The notes under the pieces were generated by a model. The model did no database searches. It was not told the origin of the DNA and worked only from the letters and a program-made list of their open reading frames with translations. 64,000 nucleotides of DNA, from positions 4,593,001 to 4,657,000 of the forward strand of contig NC_134679.1 in NCBI RefSeq assembly GCF_024713945.1. Reading direction: 5' to 3'. Source of the DNA: Dermatophagoides farinae (taxonomy: Eukaryota; Arthropoda; Arachnida; Sarcoptiformes; Pyroglyphidae). Each line of letters begins with the position of its first letter. The first letter of the stretch is position 1. A program made the position numbers and the translations under genes. Positions 4,946 to 47,624 of this stretch are shown piece after piece.

Positions 4946-5952
4946 TATGATGATAATATTTTATCGACGTCATTCTCCACATTTATGTTTGATTTTTTTT
5001 TTTTGTTCACCACTCACACCGAAAAATTTTTCTTTTTCCAAACACAAACATATTCGACGTTCAATTTTGTCATATCCATATATATTACATACAAGCTGTA
5101 TGAATGGCTTGATGTTGTCCTTGTAAAATAGAAGCTAAAAATATCATGATCATCATGATCATCATTGAATAGCCGAATTTTCATTCAACACGGACACAGA
5201 ATATATATAGGCTGGTAGTATATTGAAAAGTAGTGTGCCGTGTTCATGCGTTATGAGTTGTGTGTGAATAATTTTTTTTTGTTCATTTTGATTCATTCAT
5301 CGAAAAAAAAATTCTTGCTCTTGTTATTTGAAATTTCATTTTTCATAAAAAAATCGAATGTTTCATTGTTTATTTTCGAAAAAAAAACAAATTGCCATTA
5401 TCATTGATATGGTTGAAAAAATGTAGCGTTTTTTTTTTATTTACCCGATTGATTTTGATTGAATGTTGTTGTTGTTGTTGACGTTGTTGAATGTTGTGAT
5501 TCGTTTTCGATGCAATCAATTGATAATGGATTTTTGGACAATAATCTGCCAAAAAATATACATTCGAATTATAAAATTTTACACTTTTTAAAACGGAAAT
5601 CAAAAAAAAAAAAAATGACATACGTCTTTTTGTGTCAGTAGCGACATCTTTCGAAGATTGTCTTCAACTATTTGAAAGTTTGAATAATAAATTTTTTTTT
5701 TCACTTTCATGTGACCAGAAAGGAAAGAATGGAAAGAAAAATTGGGTCATAGACACATATGACTTATCAATAGATTTTTGAATAGCCTTGAATATGTTTC
5801 AAAAACAAACCCAAAACTATATTGACCGGATGCTTGGTTGGTTTGATCAATAATGTTTAAGAAATAGTAAAATGGGAAAAAAAACAACCAGATGTGAATG
5901 TGCGTTGTGTATACCTAGAAAAAAAAATCCTTGAAACATAAATCTGGCCTTG

Positions 5953-8735: not shown

Positions 8736-12059
<3,324 letters not shown>

Positions 12060-37124: not shown

Positions 37125-38297
37125 TTATGATGATGATGATGATTTATTTTGGCGACGTTTGACAATCAAATTTTTTATGAAAAATTCACCAGCTTTATAT
37201 GAAGATCGAACTAATGGACCAGAGGCAGTGTAAGCAAAACCTAATTGATTACCATAATCTTCCCAAAAGGCAAATTTTTCGGGTGTTACATATTCGACAA
37301 CTTTTAGATGACGTTTTGTTGGTTGCATATATTGACCCAATGTAAGACAATCGACATTAGCTTGCCGTAGATCTTCCATTGTTTGTTTGATTTGATCATC
37401 TGTTTCCCCGAAACCAAGCATCAATGATGTTTTCGTTATGATTTCTGATTTAAATTCTTTAACACATCGAAGAACGTCCAATGATTGATCGTAATTGGCA
37501 CGTGGATCTCTTACAAATTTTTGGTAATCACGAACAGTTTCTATGTTATGTGCAAACACATCTAAACCAGATAATGCTACCGCACGAACATCAGTACGTT
37601 GGCCACGAAAATCTGGTGTCAGACATTCGACAAGAAGTTTGGGAGAAAGACGTTTGATTTCACGGACAGTACGGGCAAAATGTTCAGCACCGCCATCAGG
37701 CATATCATCACGATCGACCGATGTAAGAACAACATAATCTAAATCCCAAGCTGCGATAGCTTGTGCGGTATTAATTGGTTCATCTGGATCTACTGGCGGT
37801 GGTTTACGAGCAGTTTTCACGGAACAAAATCTACATCCACGAGTACAAGTATCGCCCATTAACATGATGGTAGCGGTTGCAGTTGAACTTTCCGATCCAC
37901 CCCAACATTCACCGATATTTGGACATTTAGCTTCCTCACAAACAGTGTGTAATTTAAGGTTACGAAGTGTCGATTTTAATCGATGATAATTTGGTCCAAC
38001 TGGAATATCTCGTTTGAGCCATGGTGGTAAACGTAGCCGTTCACTTTCACCTATTTCCCGTTTTAATTTTCCTTGATAATCACTAAATGTCTGTACATTT
38101 CGTGGTACGACACCAGCAATAAAATCGTCAAATCCAGGTCCTTTGTCGAGTTTTTCTTTGAATGTGGTTGAAATTTTATCATCAGTCGGGCTGCCATCAT
38201 TAGCATTCGATAGTGATGAGCCAGTCGAAAAACACATCCAACGTTGTATGGATAAAGAAACAGCTAATTTCGTTCGATGGCTCAATGTATGTTGCAT
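37125..38297 (-). CDS. LIAS: Lipoyl synthase, mitochondrial (radical SAM)
   Basis: Single-exon 390-aa protein (human 372). The N-terminus is basic and Ser-rich, fitting a mitochondrial presequence. The auxiliary 4Fe-4S cluster ligands are C120, C125 and C131 (CX4CX5C), and the radical SAM ligands C151, C155 and C158 (CTRGCRFC). The C-terminal RSSYKAGEF at 364-372 supplies the conserved serine ligand to the auxiliary cluster. It inserts two sulfurs into octanoyl chains on PDH, KGDH and GCV H protein to make lipoyl groups. It is convergent with KYNU and divergent from FAF2. A poly-Ser tail ends the protein, encoded by a GAT/ATC-type repeat. Confidence 0.97.
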
Positions 38298-38692
38298 TTT
38301 TGTTGTTGTTACAACAATAAATTTATTTGAACAAAAATTTAAACAATAATAATAATTCCAAAACCATTTAATTCGAACTTTGATCGCTTGCTTTTGTTAG
38401 CAATTTTACATTTGCAACCAAACGAGTAGAAATAGACTCGAGCGAATGTGTTTATATTGGATGTTTATGTTTATATCACAGCATTTTTTTTTTTGATTCA
38501 ATTCATCATTGCCATAATCTCATTATCATCAAACGACCATATAGCCATTTTATTCAGCTTGTCATCATATTATTTTTTTCTTTTGTTTTAATTATTATTT
38601 TGGACAACAAAAGCTTAATTCCAATTTACATGCACATATTTTGCTGTTATAAAAAAGTCATCAATCGTAATAAATTATTAGAATAATAAGAA
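38298..38692. promoter_or_regulatory. Shared promoter interval, LIAS / FAF2
   Basis: 395 bp between divergent start codons. Both promoters must lie here. AT-rich, no clear TATA or initiator that I would assert. Confidence 0.45.
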
Positions 38693-40316
38693 ATGGGTGA
38701 TCATCAACAACAAGATCTAATCGAACAAATCCGTGATCAATTGACCGAAGATCAACGGAAAAAATTGTCTCAATTTAAAGTGAGTTTCAAATTTTGTCTT
38801 TCAGAATAAATATTTATTTATTTATTTAAGGATATATCCGGAATGAATGATTTTGAATCCTATCATATATTGCGAGCAAATGAATGGAACGTTGAAATTG
38901 CTTTGGATCTTACCTTGGAAGGAGCTTATAATCGCGATGTCATTCAGAATATGATACAGCAATCGAACAGTAATAACAACGAAGAGCAGCCTGATACAAC
39001 AACATCTTCATTGAGACGTCGAAATGTTCCGACACCTCCGTCATCGTTTTCTTCCACGAGTTTTTCATCATCATCGACATTATTGCTTGATAATGATACA
39101 AATACAAGTGCAATAAATAACAATAGAAGTAACAATAATAGTAATAATGATAATGATAATGGTCTTCATATGGTACTATGGAATACGGCTACCTGGATAT
39201 TTAAATTACCATTTATATTGGTCATGAATACCTTGAATACATTTTATGATTTTTTCATCTCGATGATCTATCCGACATTAAGTAGGTTTACAATTTATAT
39301 TGCGATTATTTTTTTTTAAATTTGCTGCATTTTTTCTAGATTATGATCCAAATGGAACAGTCGAACTATTCATTCGTGAATTTGAGGAAAAATATGGACA
39401 ACAACATCCCACATTTTTTCGTGGTACTTATTCCCAAGTAATCGAACATGGTAAACGTGAGATACGTTTCGTATTAATCTACATTCATTCTCCATCATAT
39501 CGCGATATTGATAAATTTTGTACAAACGTTATTATCACACAAAAATTTATCGATTTAATCAATGGAGAAAATCTAATATTCTGGTCATGCTCAGTTGATT
39601 ATCCGGAAGGTTATAAAGCTTATCAATCGTTAAAGGTTAATCAATATCCTTTCATGGCATTGATTGGCCTTAAGAATCACAAAATGATTGTAATGAAAAA
39701 AATCGAAGGCTTCCACAATGTCGATACCATTGTGGCCACTTTACGTACTGCTATACAAAATAATGAATTTTCCTTGATGGCTGCCCGTCTTGATCGTCAG
39801 GAACGTGATATGGCAAGTTTGATTCGCGCTCAACAGGATGCTGCATTTGAAGAATCGTTGAAAGCCGATCAAGAAAAAGAACGCCGTAAACGTGAAGAAC
39901 GCGAACAAATTGAACGAAAAGAACTTCTTGAACGACAACGACAACAAGCTGAAGAGGAACGTAAACAACGGATATCAGATATGAAGAAATCATTGCTCGC
40001 AGACATATCAACCGAACCGGATGCTGATCAATCGGATGCATGGCGTATAATGTTCAAACTGCCTAATGGTACACGCTTAGAGCGCCGGTTTCTCCGTACA
40101 GATCCTGTCAAATATCTTTACTATTATGTATTTTGTAAAGAGATGGAATTGATAAATTTTAAATTGCGTACAAATTTTCCTACGCGTGATCTTCCCGGAC
40201 ATTCACCATCATTCGATGATAATAGATTGCCGAATTCATCGGATATGAATCTGCCATTAGAACAATGTAATCTTGACAATAATATCGTACTATTTGTACA
40301 TGATTTGGATTCATAA
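38693..40316 (+). CDS. FAF2: FAF2/UBXD8, ERAD and lipid-droplet p97 adaptor
   Basis: Exons 38693-38779, 38831-39281 and 39340-40316, giving 504 aa (human 445). Order: UBA domain (about 10-55, with SGMNDFESYHILRANEWNV), an Asn/Ser-rich linker, a hydrophobic hairpin (about 145-178, IFKLPFILVMNTLNTFYDF), a UAS thioredoxin-like domain (about 190-320, ending in the FHNVDTIVATL region), a charged coiled coil (about 325-400), and a C-terminal UBX domain (about 410-504, with RIMFKLPNGTRLERRF). FAF2 inserts its hairpin into the ER or lipid-droplet surface and recruits p97/VCP through UBX for extraction of ubiquitinated proteins. The extra length comes mainly from the Asn-rich linker (residues about 75-140). 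Confidence 0.95.
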
Positions 40317-40935
40317 AATTCCATCTTTTTTGAATGGAAACACCGTCGTTAATCCCCGATACATTGATTTTTTTTTAATATTCTAATTGTGAAAAATACA
40401 CCCATAATTATATGAATACTTATTGAAAATGTGGTAAAAAATTTTACTTTTATCGTTTATTTAGATTTTTTTTTATTTTTGTTGTTTATTGTTTGAAACC
40501 AGAAAATTCTGTTTACTCAAAAAAGACATATGCTATTCTCTATATTTTATTTTTCATTTTATGATTCATTCTCAAATCATAATATAATGATAAATGCTTT
40601 TACGAAAAGGACCAAGTTTTGAACAAATTTTAAAATAATCGATGTTTTCGTTCATTACACGATACTCGTACGGCCAGGTTTATTTTGTTCTTTTCTCGTT
40701 TTCATGCTTGTCTATGATTTTTTTTCCTTCATTCAAGTCATTTGCAAATTTTATAATCTTATCACGCAATTTATTTATTGCATAGTTGAGCTAATTAATA
40801 TGAAATGAAATGAAATCTATCATTATCAATAGCAATCAAAGAAATAATGGTTAAATGATTGACCCATTATTCATGATGAACAGTTAAAAGGGCATCGTTT
40901 CGAATCAACTATTGGCAATAAAATTGAATTTTTTT
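40317..40935. other. Spacer between FAF2 and SLC25A32
   Basis: 619 bp holding the FAF2 3' UTR and the SLC25A32 promoter. AT-rich; nothing else seen. Confidence 0.5.
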
Positions 40936-42843
40936 ATGGTCGCTAAAACGATGAATAAATTAAATTCACAACCATTTTCTAAATCAAATCCAGATCAATC
41001 ATCATCAGCGACAATGACTACAAAAAGCCAAAAAACATCAAAATCTGATATGACTTTATCATCGAATGTTAAATATGAACATCTAGTCGCCGGTATATCC
41101 GGAGGGGTAGCATCCACACTGGCATTACATCCACTTGATTTGCTCAAAGTTCGGTTGGCTGGTAAGACATATTGTTTTCACTTGAAAAATAATCGCTAAT
41201 TTTAATTTTTTTTATAATCAGTCAATGATGGTCAAGTAGCAACTAGACCACAATATAGTGGCTTAATTAATGCCGTTACGACCATATTTCGTCAAGAAGG
41301 TGTTCGTGGATTTTATCGAGGTGTCACACCAAATTGTTGGGGTGCTGGAACTTCTTGGGGTCTTTATTTTCTATTGTAAGCAAAAAAAAAATTTTTAGCC
41401 GTTTGTCCATTATTAAATATTTAAATTTTCATACAGTTACAATGCAATAAAATCTCACATGTCCAATGTCGGTGATATACAAATGAATTTGAATGCTGGT
41501 CAACATATAGTGGCCGCATCCGAAGCGGGTATTATGACCTTGGTGTTGACTAATCCAATATGGGTGGTTAAAACACGATTATGTCTTCAATACGGTGGTA
41601 TGAGCGAAAATGCTGTCCAACCTACTAAACGCTATAGTGGTATGTTGGATGCATTGACCAAAATCTATCGTTTTGAAGGCATTCGGGGCCTATATCGTGG
41701 ATTTGTACCAGGTATATTTGGTGTATCACATGGTGCACTACAATTTATGGCCTATGAAGAATTGAAACGATATTATATTGAACATTATGGTTTACGACGG
41801 GAAGAACGATTAGGGACAGCAGCCTATCTTGGTTGTGCTGCTTTAAGTAAATTATTTGCCGCAATCATCACATATCCATATCAGGTGGTACGTGCACGTC
41901 TACAAGATCAATATGCAAATTATAATGGCGTTGTGGATGTTATACGTCGTACTTGGAGGTATGTTTATCCAAAACATTTTTTCAATCTTTATAGTTTTCG
42001 ATCTCATTGGACGTCTCGAAAAAAATACCCATTCATAAATTCATGCTTCGCTGCAACTGTATAATTTGTTTTTTTTCATTTTTTGCATTAATATGATGTT
42101 GATTTCATTTTTTTAATCGGTAATTCGATTTAGTCGGTTCACCTTTTGCTTCCGGCATCAGAATTTTGTTTAAATACGTTGGTTTAATGATAACATGATT
42201 TTCTAATCAAATTTTTCATGGTTCATTCAAATTTCCGTTTTATTTTTGATTTTGTTGATGTTTGCGTGTGTGTGTGTATGTATGTATGTATGTATGTATG
42301 CATGTTTATGCGAATTCCTTAGAGCTTTTGTTTCCCGGTAATTCGAATTTGAACATGCACAAAACTCTTTCATCTTTCTATCGAATCCTAACCATCGGAC
42401 CGAGAGCAATGGAATCCGGTATGATGTAAGATGAATGACTGAATTGTGGTCTAATTTATGGAGCAACCATAAAACCTGATCCCATTTATATTTTTCCATG
42501 TTTTTTTTTCCTCTATTGTTACGCTTCTTTTCACCCCACATTTTTATGGTTCGTTTATCTTCATCTAGTGTAGGGCTACACTTTTCAATTATAGTTAACA
42601 CTTTCTTAAATGTTTGTGTGTCTCTATAAAAAAAACCTCTTTCCGTCTTGGTCTATTTTTTGTTTTATATCTTATTTCTCGGTCTTTTATATGTCAGGTA
42701 CGAATCGTTACGAGGATTTTACAAAGGTCTTGCTGCCTATCTACTTCATGTTACACCGAACATTTGCATCGTATTCATTATATATGAACATTTTTCTCGG
42801 CCATCTAAATTGGATTCGGTTGTTGATCATCAAATGCCATCAA

Positions 42844-42875
<32 letters not shown>

Positions 42876-45050
42876 CCATCACAACAACAAACATCATCAA
42901 CACAATCATTATCATCTTTAATAGCCACTGATATTAGCGCTGTGGAAACATCATCTTTTGTATTTGATGAATGAACATTGATCAAATTCTTTTTATGTGA
43001 TTACACCCTGTGTTAAAACACAAACAAAAAAACAAAAAATCGAACCAAATCTCTAGAACAAAACAACCACAATAATAGTGTGCGTAGGTTTTTGATGATG
43101 ATGATGGCCGAATTGATTTAAACCTGTGAAAATATTTATACAATTGATCTGAAAATTTAAAAATTCGAATCACTGTTCCGTCCTAATTATTTATCTTATT
43201 AATCAATTAAGCTTTAGCAATTATCCCTTTTTGTTAATTTATATTTATATATATTGTGAATGTGTTTGCAGCATTAATATTTTGTCGCTTTTTTTTATCA
43301 TTGTTAAAATTATTATAAATGTGAATATAATTGTTTATAATTATATATATATAGTTATTATTATTATGGGCAAAAAAAATTACGATCACACACACCCTTA
43401 CCTATCTAAATATCTTAAGATGCCTTTTTTAATATAATTCCTTGTTCTTTAAATATTTTCTTTGTTTGACTTTTGAAATTTGAATATGATGAACCATAAT
43501 TATAAAGAATGAATGAATGGATCGAATGAATTTAACCTGAATGATGATCATTTATTGTTTGCAAAGATGATTGAATTAATGAGAAAAATAGAGAGATGTA
43601 TATAGAAATGTCGAACGTAAAATGCAAATGAAAAAAAATGAAAAAAAATTTCTATTCCCTTGATTCTATTCTCTTGAACGTACGGTTCAATCGATTCATG
43701 CATGGATTGTTTCATTTTCATTCGTTTTTTTTTTATTCTTGGTTTTTTTTATTCTTTTTTTTTTTTTTGATTTTTGAATAAATTTTTCTTTGGGCTCTTC
43801 ATTTCTCCAATGATGATGATCATCATGTCTGGTTCATGTTTTTGATATATATAATTTCATTAACTTTTTATGCCTCTGTGCGTGTGTTTGTGTGTGTGTG
43901 TTTGCAAGATTTGACAGCCGTTTAATCATACATTTAGCTTATTGAAACGAAAAAAAAAACAAATACTTACCATTCTAATGGTTTATTTACGGATCGTGTT
44001 TATTCGTTTATAATTTATTATTTAACACGATGAACACAAGCAATATCATTAGAATACAAAACAAAACAAAAATGACTTACACATGTTAGATTCATTTGAA
44101 CAATAAAAAAAAAGTTTCATTCCAAAATTGTGATGTTACGAATTCTGTGATGATGATGATGATGATGATGATGATGCACACATGCTGTCATGCATATCAA
44201 TGTGAACAAAAAAAAACACCATCGTCTTTAAAGTTTCAAATCCCAAATGACAAAGGCGATTGGATGGATTTTTTGTTGTTGTTGTTGTTGCTTTTTGATT
44301 CAATCGATTTTTTTTGTCCTCACAGATTATTTTAAATTTTCATCGCAATCCGAAAACATGATGATGATGATGACGATGATGATGATATTGATTCGATCAA
44401 TTTTTTTTTTTTTTTTAGTTTTTATTTCATTCGTATTCTCAATTCTTCAAGGTTATTTTTATTTGAATATTCGTGTTTTTTATTCTGGAACAGAAAATTA
44501 TTATTGTTGATGATAATGATGATGGACAGAGTATAAAAAAAATAATTCTGAATGATTCGTTGTTACCACCGTGTTGTCTTCAGGTTTTTTTTCTGATGAT
44601 AAATAATTTATAATACAATCAATATATCTAAAAATAACATGAATTTGAACTAAAATTGATGCATGAATTTTTTTTTCTTGTCCATTTTATAAATATGTTG
44701 AAAAAGATTTGTTATTGTCTGTAATTCAGAGAAGAAAAATGGACAATCTTTTTTTTCGTTCGTTCTCGTTATCTATTTTAATTTTTGTTCCGGTTCTCTC
44801 TATTTATACAGAAAATATTCAGATCACCTAAATCTCAATTTATAATAAATTTTTTCTTTTTTTTTCATTGTCTAGATTGGAAGGTGCCAAAGGATTCTAT
44901 AAAGGAATCGTTCCAAATTTATTGCGAGTAACACCTGCATGTGCAATAACATTTGTTGTTTATGAAAATACATCACATTTATTATTGTATGGATGGTCAT
45001 CAACGGACAATAATAACAACAGTGACAACAACAACAAAACTGGTCATTGA
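40936..45050 (+). CDS. SLC25A32: Mitochondrial FAD/folate carrier SLC25A32, with alternative last exons
   Basis: Common exons 40936-41161, 41222-41375 and 41437-41958, then either 42698-42974 (392 aa) or 44876-45050 (358 aa). Human is 315 aa; the N-terminus is extended by a Ser/Lys-rich leader of about 45 residues. The three mitochondrial carrier signatures are [24 protein letters not shown] and [13 protein letters not shown]; Trp in the second repeat's PxW is typical of this subfamily. Other matches are [25 protein letters not shown] (split over exons 2 and 3) and [17 protein letters not shown]25A32 moves FAD, and by some reports folate, across the inner mitochondrial membrane. Exon 3 ends with AG of a split Arg codon, which both last exons complete. 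Confidence 0.93.
42698..42974 (+). other. SLC25A32: SLC25A32 alternative last exon 4a (divergent helix 6, poly-Ser tail)
   Basis: Acceptor TGTCAG|G, in the phase required by exon 3. It encodes [21 protein letters not shown] and then [12 protein letters not shown], a complete helix 6 of the carrier fold, followed by about 55 residues rich in Ser and Gln, partly from a TCA repeat, and a TGA stop. Residue 318 is His, where exon 4b has Arg. An AATAAA at 43777-43782 followed by T-rich sequence could end this transcript. Confidence 0.75.
43777..43782 (+). promoter_or_regulatory. Candidate poly(A) signal for the exon 4a transcript
   Basis: First AATAAA I find downstream of exon 4a, about 0.8 kb after its stop and about 1.1 kb before exon 4b, followed by a T-rich stretch. 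By position it would allow the short transcript to terminate before exon 4b. Confidence 0.35.
44148..44176. repeat. (GAT)n trinucleotide microsatellite
   Basis: About nine GAT units in the SLC25A32 interval between exons 4a and 4b. Confidence 0.95.
44876..45050 (+). other. SLC25A32: SLC25A32 alternative last exon 4b (canonical helix 6)
   Basis: Acceptor TGTCTAG|A, in the same phase as 4a. It encodes [21 protein letters not shown], then [17 protein letters not shown], which closely matches the end of known SLC25A32 proteins. A short Asn-rich tail and TGA follow. Over the first 34 residues about half are identical to exon 4a without gaps. Confidence 0.85.
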
Positions 45051-47624
45051 TGATAATGTGTTTCACGCTTGCACAACATCATCATCGAAATGTGAAAGCA
45101 GCAAAAAAAAACCTAGATAATATTTTACATGTCTCAAAACTCTTCTCTTATTTTTTCTGTTTCTGTTTTTTTTTCTCCACATTTCGATAAATATTATTTC
45201 GAATGTTTCGAATATTTTCATTCATCGGTTGATTTATGTATCTGAAATTTTTGTTTATTTTTTTTTCTTCTTCTTGCTGTCGTTATTTGTATCTCGTTTC
45301 ATTTTTATTATTTTGTGTCCATTTTCGGCAAATATTGTCTTTACCATATTTTTCATTTTGATGTAAACTCGATTAATGTAGAAAAAATTGCTATTTTTTT
45401 TGTTCATTTGAGAATTTGTAAAATTTATTAATTGATAATGGTGGTGGGCGACCATTTCACGTTTGAATGGATATCGAATTTCGAATGTTTTTTTTTGTTT
45501 TGTTCAACGGTGATTTATTGAACAGATGTTGTAAATGCCACCCCCTTATTATTATCATTATTATTATTGATAGAACCCTTGAACCTCATTGTTGATGATA
45601 ATCAAAAAAAATAAAAATAAAATAAAAAGGCCCTAGAGATTTTTTCTTTTATTCTTTTTGTGATAAATAATTGTATCCATTCATATAAACATCCATACAT
45701 TTGACACTTTGTACTTGATGGCAACATTAATTCTTATTGTATCTGTAGATTGTTTGTGTGTGTGTATGTGTGTTTGGCCAAGAGTCGGCGCATATCCATA
45801 AAATCTTGATTCTATGGTATCAAACGAAAAAAAAACGAATATTTGTGTATTCTCTCTGTTGAATGCATTCTTATTCTGGTTTTGATTCGAAACCCATCGC
45901 TATAATGTTGTTGTTCGTAATATCAAATTTCTTGATTTGTATTTGAACCGAAAAAGACAAAGAATTTTGCCATTGTTTTGCTTATCTAAACTACTATAGC
46001 TATCATCATTCTCGTCATTAATCTTTCCTCGATCAATTAATATTATAATTAGTATATTGTTTGTTTGTGTGTTCTGAAAACAAAAATTGTATGCATCGAA
46101 AATAATGATAATAATGGAGAAGAAAAAACAAATTCAACAATCAGATGAAATATTTTTCCATCTCTCCTTCTAAAATTCATCTCATTCAAATTCATTCATT
46201 TGAAATCATTAAATGAAAAAAAACCTTTTTGTCTCCATTTGTCCTGAGTGTATATTTGTGATTTTATTTTGTTTGTGAATTTCAAAAGTTTTTCAAGTGT
46301 TTTTCTTTTGGCTTTTTGATTCATAATCAAGTCTTTATTGTTATCATCATTTTTGGGTTAAAAATCTTGTAAGTTGGGTTAAATTTTCATTTTCAATTTT
46401 ATTTCCTATATTCGTCCATTTTTTATAGAAAACGATTTGTTTATGTAATTTCTATATTTTCATTTAGTGGATATTTTTTCCTTTGTTACAATGTTAGATG
46501 TGTTAAATGGAAACAGGAACATTATCATCGTTTGCAAACTAAAAGTTGTAGAACTTTTTGGCATTAGTTTAGTTCTGAGAATATCGAATTGTAATTTCAT
46601 CAATTTTGCAATTGATTTTTTTCATTTTGTTGCGTTTTTTTGTTGATGGAAGTAGTAACAAAAAACAATTGATCGATTTAAAGAATGGGAAACAAAATGA
46701 AAAAGAAAAAAAAATCTGCCCTTGGCAGAAAAATGGATAAAGAAATTTTATGTAATTTTCTTCTACTTCTGAAACCTGGTTTTTATCAATTCTGAAAGTG
46801 ATGACATCCATCCATCCAACCGAATATGATGTAAGAATATTTTCACAAGTCTTTACATTTTTTTGGGTAAAAATAGTAACGAAAAGATAAAAGCAGGAAA
46901 AAGACACCTGGAGCATTTTTTTTTCTTTATTTTCATGAAAATAGTTTCATTCAGAAAAAAAACAACAAGAGCAATGATGATGATGATAGCCATATGAATC
47001 TGCTGAATTGAATGTGAATTAGCTAAAAAGAATCAAAAGAATTTAATAGATTGAATGATGATGATGTAATATTCAAAAGAGAATTTTGAGAATTTCTGGA
47101 AAATGTTTCACATGCCAAATTTGTGTGTGTGTGAATATGGTTCCAACGAATGGAAATTTTTTCTCTCTCCCATCTCTTTCCATCCATCCGCTACCGATAA
47201 ACAAAAAAAATAAACGATTCACTAAAAACTAGTTTTGAGGCTAAATTGAATTTTTTTTATTTTTTTCATTTTTTATTCTTATTCTTCAATAATATTCATC
47301 ATCAACTTGTCAGAATGTTTGTTGTAATGATTTTTTTGTTTGCTTTCATTCTTTATTATTCTAGGTGACTGGTTTTATTTATTATTGTTTTTTCTTGCTT
47401 TCTTTATGTACTAAACACACACACACACACACACACGTTTGATTCTTGTTCGTTTTAGCAGGTTGATTATTCAATTTCCGCTTATTATTATTCTGTTATA
47501 CATGCTGCATATGTATGTGTGTGTGTGTGCCACTTGTATTTTTTTTATCGGCATTCATTCCATTTTTGTAATTCGTTAGAATCAATTCATGATGATGATG
47601 ACAGAAGACGAAAAAAGAATTTTT

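What the first reader, a model, noticed from the sequence alone, without database searches (positions are those of the whole stretch)
41951..45050. SLC25A32 has two alternative last exons, each encoding a full sixth helix
Exon 3 ends TGG AG|GTATGT. Two downstream exons, 42698-42974 and 44876-45050, both begin after an AG acceptor in the matching phase. Both encode the terminal carrier segment (GFYKG, VTP and YE conserved) with no gaps over 34 residues and about half identity. Exon 4b is the canonical family end. Exon 4a differs at residue 318 (His for Arg in the LLxVTP motif of helix 6), at 313-315 and 322-324, and adds a Ser/Gln-rich tail. Helix 6 lines the transport path in mitochondrial carriers, so the two isoforms could differ in substrate, rate or partner binding. 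The likely origin is a tandem exon duplication, with choice by splicing or poly(A) site use. I know of no description of this arrangement for SLC25A32.
Basis: partly seen in the sequence, partly recalled or inferred. Interest (0 to 1): 0.82.

Follow-up and report, generated by a model that had tools for sequence, protein, structure and literature searches.

The report
Dust-mite vitamin carrier with two endings
In what looks like a house-dust-mite genome, the gene for a mitochondrial flavin/folate carrier has two interchangeable last exons, each encoding a complete final membrane helix, and the extra one replaces the only charged contact residue of the predicted substrate site; it bears the mark of long selection, but no RNA evidence was at hand to show that it is used.

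Summary
SLC25A32 (exons 40936-41161, 41222-41375, 41437-41958) can splice in phase to 42698-42974 (4a) or 44876-45050 (4b), giving 392- or 358-residue carriers that differ only after Arg301. 4a and 4b share 16 of 33 residues without a gap. At their nucleotide divergence (46 of 99) neutral decay reached that identity in 0 of 5000 runs and 3 of 36,000 under twelve other settings, so 4a was held by selection for most of its history.

New point: residue 318 is contact point III of the substrate site. By motif, isoform B has Gly116/Gly222/Arg318 there and isoform A has His318. Four of five helix-6 positions that a review assigns to the site differ. The genome matches Dermatophagoides farinae in size and contig statistics.

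Not shown: expression, function, conservation elsewhere; the scans found no relative. 4a's codon usage is weakly coding-like, and 4a is only the fourth-best genome match of 4b, so descent from 4b is likely, not proven. Swapped and duplicated exons are a known kind (SLC25A3), and I recall, unverified, two isoforms of fly CG8026. Verdict: probably a real alternative last exon, a new variant of a known kind, of moderate interest.

The parts
40936..41161 (+). SLC25A32 exon 1 (first in-frame ATG, at 40936, taken as start)
   Evidence: GT-AG, open frame; start codon choice not tested
41222..41375 (+). SLC25A32 exon 2
41437..41958 (+). SLC25A32 exon 3, ends in phase 2 (AG|) before donor GTATGT
   Evidence: Pfam Mito_carr matches
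41959..42697 (+). intron to exon 4a, 739 nt (2917 nt to 4b; the gene's other introns are 60 and 61 nt)
42698..42974 (+). alternative last exon 4a: helix 6 with His318, then a Ser/Gln-rich tail; stop codon included
42838..42916 (+). trinucleotide repeat (CAT/TCA) that encodes the Ser-rich part of the 4a tail
44147..44176 (+). TGA repeat, complementary over 30 of 30 nt to 42847-42876 in 4a; possible RNA pairing, may be chance
44876..45050 (+). alternative last exon 4b: canonical family helix 6 with Arg318; stop codon included

Best explanation
The SLC25A32 gene of this mite (most likely Dermatophagoides farinae) has two homologous, mutually exclusive last exons. A transcript is either spliced to the proximal 4a and cleaved after it, giving a 392-residue carrier, or skips 4a and is spliced to the distal 4b, giving the canonical 358-residue carrier. 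Each protein is a complete six-helix carrier; they share helices 1-5 and differ from Arg301 on. Shown: matching splice signals and phase, homology, and a substitution pattern that excludes neutral decay over most of the divergence. Inferred: that 4a is expressed; that the choice is a competition between splicing and cleavage at 4a and splicing to 4b; and that replacing Arg318, the only charged contact-point residue, with His, along with changes at three other predicted substrate-site positions, alters substrate affinity, substrate range or pH dependence rather than folding.
For: Same phase and GT-AG sites for both exons, intact frames of 91 and 57 residues. 16 of 33 residues identical at 46 of 99 nucleotide differences; pS 0.75 (saturated), pN 0.375; neutral decay gave at least 16 identical in 0 of 5000 runs and in 0 or 1 of 3000 runs for each of 12 other settings, 3 of 36,000 in all. 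No other part of the gene is seen duplicated between exon 3 and 4b: Pfam matches there are exons 1-3 and 4b, and the 4a query adds only 4a and 4b in this stretch. Introns before 4a and 4b are 739 and 2917 nt against 60 and 61 nt elsewhere in the gene. In all five printed third-repeat alignments (two yeast and one Thermothelomyces ADP/ATP carrier, UCP2, UCP1) Arg318 of isoform B lies over an arginine. The review passages name triplets 77, 80, 81, 84 and possibly 85 as substrate-site positions and 80 as the contact points; 4 of these 5 differ between 4a and 4b.
Against: No RNA, protein or population data. Codon usage of the 4a helix is barely coding-like (log-odds 0.007, reached by 7.4% of 605 overlapping open intron stretches, against 0.317 for 4b and 0.386 for exon 3). 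4a alone scores under Pfam's cut-off. For the 33 helix codons alone an open frame is not surprising (11% by stop density). The excess of changes at substrate-site positions is not significant (Fisher p 0.15). AATAAA occurs 3 times between 4a and 4b, 3.3 expected, so no poly(A) site for 4a is demonstrated. 4a is only fourth among the matches of 4b other than itself. No relative was found in 2 scans of genome contigs and 3 of viral contigs; those collections are not expected to hold arthropods. A recent loss of function of 4a would leave the same substitution pattern.
Confidence: 0.72

Rival explanations
1. 4a is a relic: an old, once functional alternative exon that has recently fallen out of use and is now an unspliced pseudo-exon.
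For: Barely coding-like codon usage in the 4a helix; the tail is a trinucleotide repeat; Pfam score below cut-off; no transcript evidence.
Against: No stop or frameshift in 91 codons, where the intron stop density gives 0.2% for 91 open codons (the low-complexity tail weakens this, and for 33 codons it is 11%); acceptor and phase intact; neutral decay excluded over most of the divergence.
Confidence: 0.13
2. 4a is spliced, but its product is not a second transporter: the transcript or protein serves regulation, for example as a weak or inactive carrier or as a way to lower canonical SLC25A32.
For: Loss of the only charged contact-point residue and of the helix-6 proline at residue 314 could inactivate transport; a proximal last exon is a simple off-switch (inference).
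Against: Long purifying selection kept GFYKG, VTP, YE and the helix, which a mere off-switch would not need.
Confidence: 0.12
3. 4a is a real last exon but did not come from 4b by tandem duplication; it was captured from another mitochondrial carrier. (Raised from 0.10 to 0.15 when one search was read again.) This rival concerns origin only and can hold together with the best explanation.
For: 4a's second-best genome match, a carrier on contig C2, is close in score (25.4 bits against 28.4 for 4b), and 4b matches three other carrier places better than it matches 4a (30.7, 30.0 and 28.2 against 27.9 bits).
Against: 4b is 4a's best match, adjacent, in the same orientation, phase and register.
Confidence: 0.15
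4. Chance open frame next to a chance acceptor.
For: AT-rich intron with 87 AGs examined, 11 of them passing a loose acceptor filter, and another 92-codon phase-2 frame.
Against: Homology to 4b (E 1.2e-4) and to Mito_carr, in register with the exon start.
Confidence: 0.01

Closest known systems
SLC25A3 (mitochondrial phosphate carrier) alternative splice variants A and B
   Same: A mitochondrial carrier whose mutually exclusive exons swap part of the folded transporter; the variants differ in kinetics and tissue (passages of PMC7611780, and PMC5740500)
   Different: There the exons are internal (exon 3A/3B, as I recall it); here they are terminal, carry helix 6 and the stop codon, and need a choice of poly(A) site
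SLC25A32 of other animals (mitochondrial flavin/folate carrier)
   Different: A second last exon was not seen in the listings or in the passages opened. I recall, without verification, that Drosophila CG8026 has two isoforms; a 4a-like end there would make this an old arthropod feature
Tandemly duplicated, mutually exclusive terminal exons, such as the Drosophila pip and PGRP-LC 3' variable regions
   Same: Alternative last regions chosen one at a time (passages of PMC9013439)
   Different: Other genes; there competing RNA structures are reported, here only a repeat-based pairing of doubtful meaning was seen

Membership tests
SLC25 mitochondrial carrier family, SLC25A32 | Mito_carr repeats | tested here: met
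   Pfam PF00153 over cut-off in the exon 1-3 stretch and in 4b; 4b 39.8 bits
SLC25 mitochondrial carrier family, SLC25A32 | Third repeat complete in the 4a isoform | tested here: met
   Third repeat with 4a matches solved carriers (best E 6.2e-11, against 6e-18 with 4b); 4a alone is below Pfam's cut-off
SLC25 mitochondrial carrier family, SLC25A32 | Orthology to SLC25A32 rather than another SLC25 | tested here: inconclusive
Mutually exclusive alternative last exons | Two homologous exons, each with acceptor, same phase, own stop | tested here: met
Mutually exclusive alternative last exons | Own poly(A) site for the proximal exon | tested here: inconclusive
   AATAAA 3 observed, 3.3 expected
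Mutually exclusive alternative last exons | Both junctions seen in RNA | not testable with these tools
   no RNA data
Mutually exclusive alternative last exons | Both exons conserved in relatives | tested here: inconclusive
   scans found no relative; the collections hold viral and prokaryote DNA, so absence says little

The most novel reading that the evidence does not exclude
4a is an ancient, arthropod-wide alternative end of SLC25A32. Through His318 in place of the only charged contact-point residue it makes a second carrier with a different substrate, so that one gene serves two transport tasks; this could bear on the dispute whether SLC25A32 carries folate or flavin.
Probability: 0.25. 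Interest if true: 0.7.

Novelty: new variant of a known kind. Interest (0 to 1): 0.52.

Why it matters
SLC25A32's substrate is disputed between folate and flavin (PMC7611780 passages). A natural isoform pair that shares five helices and swaps contact point III, together with neighbouring substrate-site residues, is a ready-made comparison for which residues set its specificity. It would also add a terminal-exon case to the known exon swap of SLC25A3. If 4a proves conserved in other arthropods, gene sets that keep one isoform per gene miss one of the two carriers.

Tried and rejected
Relatives in public DNA: scans of viral contigs and genome contigs matched short patterns but no relative. Literature: ten searches. 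No listed title or abstract start described alternative SLC25A32 last exons. I saw only part of what some searches found (20 of 28 papers listed; 15 of 30; 15 of 349; 15 of 32) and opened passages of nine papers in all. The library is open-licence papers only, so this does not show that nothing is in print. The carrier match about 25 kb downstream of 4b (C3:4663068) was suspected to be a third last exon and rejected: the open frames there read as another, SLC25A44-like carrier (name from recall). Rfam search of 40300-47000: no match at gathering score. Poly(A) signals: uninformative. RNA pairing between 42847-42876 in 4a and 44147-44176: perfect over 30 nt, but the 64 kb hold 14 such tracts of six or more units, these two included (8 TCA-type, 6 TGA-type), so it is not claimed. 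Enrichment of changes at substrate-site positions: not significant. The test on first and second codon positions alone (27 changes, p 0.035) is weaker than the identity test.

Full report
What is there. The window lies on contig C3 (4593001-4657000) of a genome of 62,435,336 bases in 22 contigs. Total size, scaffold count (21 in the paper, so perhaps plus a mitochondrial genome) and an N50 of 7.11-7.12 Mb fit the 2024 chromosome-level assembly of Dermatophagoides farinae (PMC11074847, passages only; contig C4 is 7,117,990 bases). An earlier D. farinae assembly of 58.77 Mb in 10 contigs does not fit (PMC8487952, passages). The identification is by match of numbers, not by sequence. The gene on the + strand at 40936-45050 reads as SLC25A32, the mitochondrial flavin/folate carrier (motifs from recall). 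Exons 1-3 are joined by GT-AG introns of 60 and 61 nt. From exon 3, whose last codon is split in phase 2, splicing to 42698 gives 392 residues and splicing to 44876 gives 358.

Homology and age. The two helix-6 stretches are 16 of 33 identical, with 46 of 99 nucleotides different (16, 11 and 19 by codon position). Synonymous sites are saturated (pS 0.75), nonsynonymous sites are not (pN 0.375). Had either copy decayed neutrally to this nucleotide divergence, about 8 of 33 residues would still match on average; at least 16 did in 0 of 5000 runs and in 3 of 36,000 runs over twelve settings of ancestor, transition bias and base composition. 4a was therefore under protein-level constraint for most of its life. 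The simulation puts all divergence in one copy and ignores indels; it cannot see a very recent loss, nor tell whether the constraint acted while 4a sat in this gene. No other part of the gene is seen duplicated: Pfam finds no further carrier fragment between exon 3 and 4b. In a search of the whole genome 4a's best match other than itself is 4b, but only slightly ahead of another carrier (28.4 against 25.4 bits). In the reverse search 4a comes fourth among 4b's matches other than itself (27.9 bits, behind 30.7, 30.0 and 28.2). Adjacent position, orientation, phase and register make tandem duplication likely; the scores do not prove it.

What the swap changes. In all five printed third-repeat alignments to solved carriers Arg318 of isoform B lies over an arginine; in UCP1 chain 8g8w this is position 280 of 310, counted by me. 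In bovine 1okc the matching motif places it at position 279; there the printed alignment sets 1okc's third repeat against the query's second, with Arg279 over Gly222, so this match is by repeat motif. [quoted passage not shown] Read by motif, the contact points of isoform B are Gly116, Gly222 and Arg318, and those of isoform A Gly116, Gly222 and His318. Of the five site triplets on helix 6 four differ (77 Asn/Tyr, 80 Arg/His, 84 Ala/Asn, 85 Cys/Ile), against five of the 13 other helix-6 positions, which is not significant (p 0.15). The proline at triplet 76 is lost in 4a; the one at 83, GFYKG and YE are kept. For the other carriers of this genome I took the last matched repeat of 29 groups, made by hand from the 85 Pfam matches, leaving out this gene and the lone match at C3:4663068. 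The motif could be read in 27 of 29 (not in L030 and L036); where the script printed several strings I took the one with the family motif. Contact point III was Arg in 16, Lys in 5, and Val, Trp, Tyr, Met, Gln and Gly in one each; none of the 27 has His. Some of these may not be true third repeats.

Does it work as an alternative last exon? For: an intact acceptor with no AG in the 60 nt before it, and a frame open for 92 codons, joint longest of 87 AGs examined; long flanking introns in a gene whose other introns are about 60 nt. Against or neutral: 11 of the 87 AGs passed the same loose acceptor filter. The codon usage of the 4a helix is barely above the intron background (0.007; 7.4% of 605 overlapping open intron stretches score as high), while 4b and exon 3 score 0.317 and 0.386. 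The Ser/Gln tail is largely a TCA repeat and is probably under little constraint, although its codons score 0.278. AATAAA counts between the two exons are at expectation. No RNA data were available. I put a functional alternative last exon at 0.72.

Place among known things. Splicing that swaps part of a mitochondrial carrier is known for SLC25A3, with different kinetics and tissue expression (PMC7611780, PMC5740500; passages). Tandem duplicated terminal exons with mutually exclusive use are known in Drosophila (PMC9013439; passages). For SLC25A32 I saw no such report in the listings or in the passages opened; most listed papers were not opened. Two of the five papers that one search lists for CG8026, the fly homologue, were opened at the passages naming it, and those passages do not mention alternative ends. 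I recall that CG8026 has two annotated isoforms; if one ends like 4a, the arrangement is older than mites and already sits unremarked in annotation. This is a lead, not evidence.

Verdict. Observation confirmed; interpretation partly supported; the sharper point is that the alternative exon replaces contact point III of the substrate site. New variant of a known kind.

Noticed in passing
G000:C3:4663068-4663184 (L009, about 5063-5400): A carrier fragment downstream of the window on the same strand, SLC25A44-like by reading (name from recall); not a third last exon of SLC25A32.
   Followed up: partly
42847-42876 with 44147-44176; 42839-42873 with 44358-44392: The TCA repeat in exon 4a is complementary over 30 of 30 nt to a TGA repeat upstream of 4b and 94% over 35 nt to another; a possible long-range RNA pairing, but 14 such tracts lie in the window.
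   Followed up: partly
41959-42064: Reading on past the exon 3 donor adds 34 residues before a stop, so intron retention would give a carrier without helix 6.
   Followed up: no
37125-40316: Neighbours: an open frame on the - strand that reads like lipoyl synthase (37125-38396) and one on the + strand that reads like FAF2/UBXD8 (to 40316), head to tail with SLC25A32; names from recall.
   Followed up: no
8771-11557: Open frames that read like an Argonaute gene with a Gly/Ser-rich N-terminal part; name from recall.
   Followed up: no
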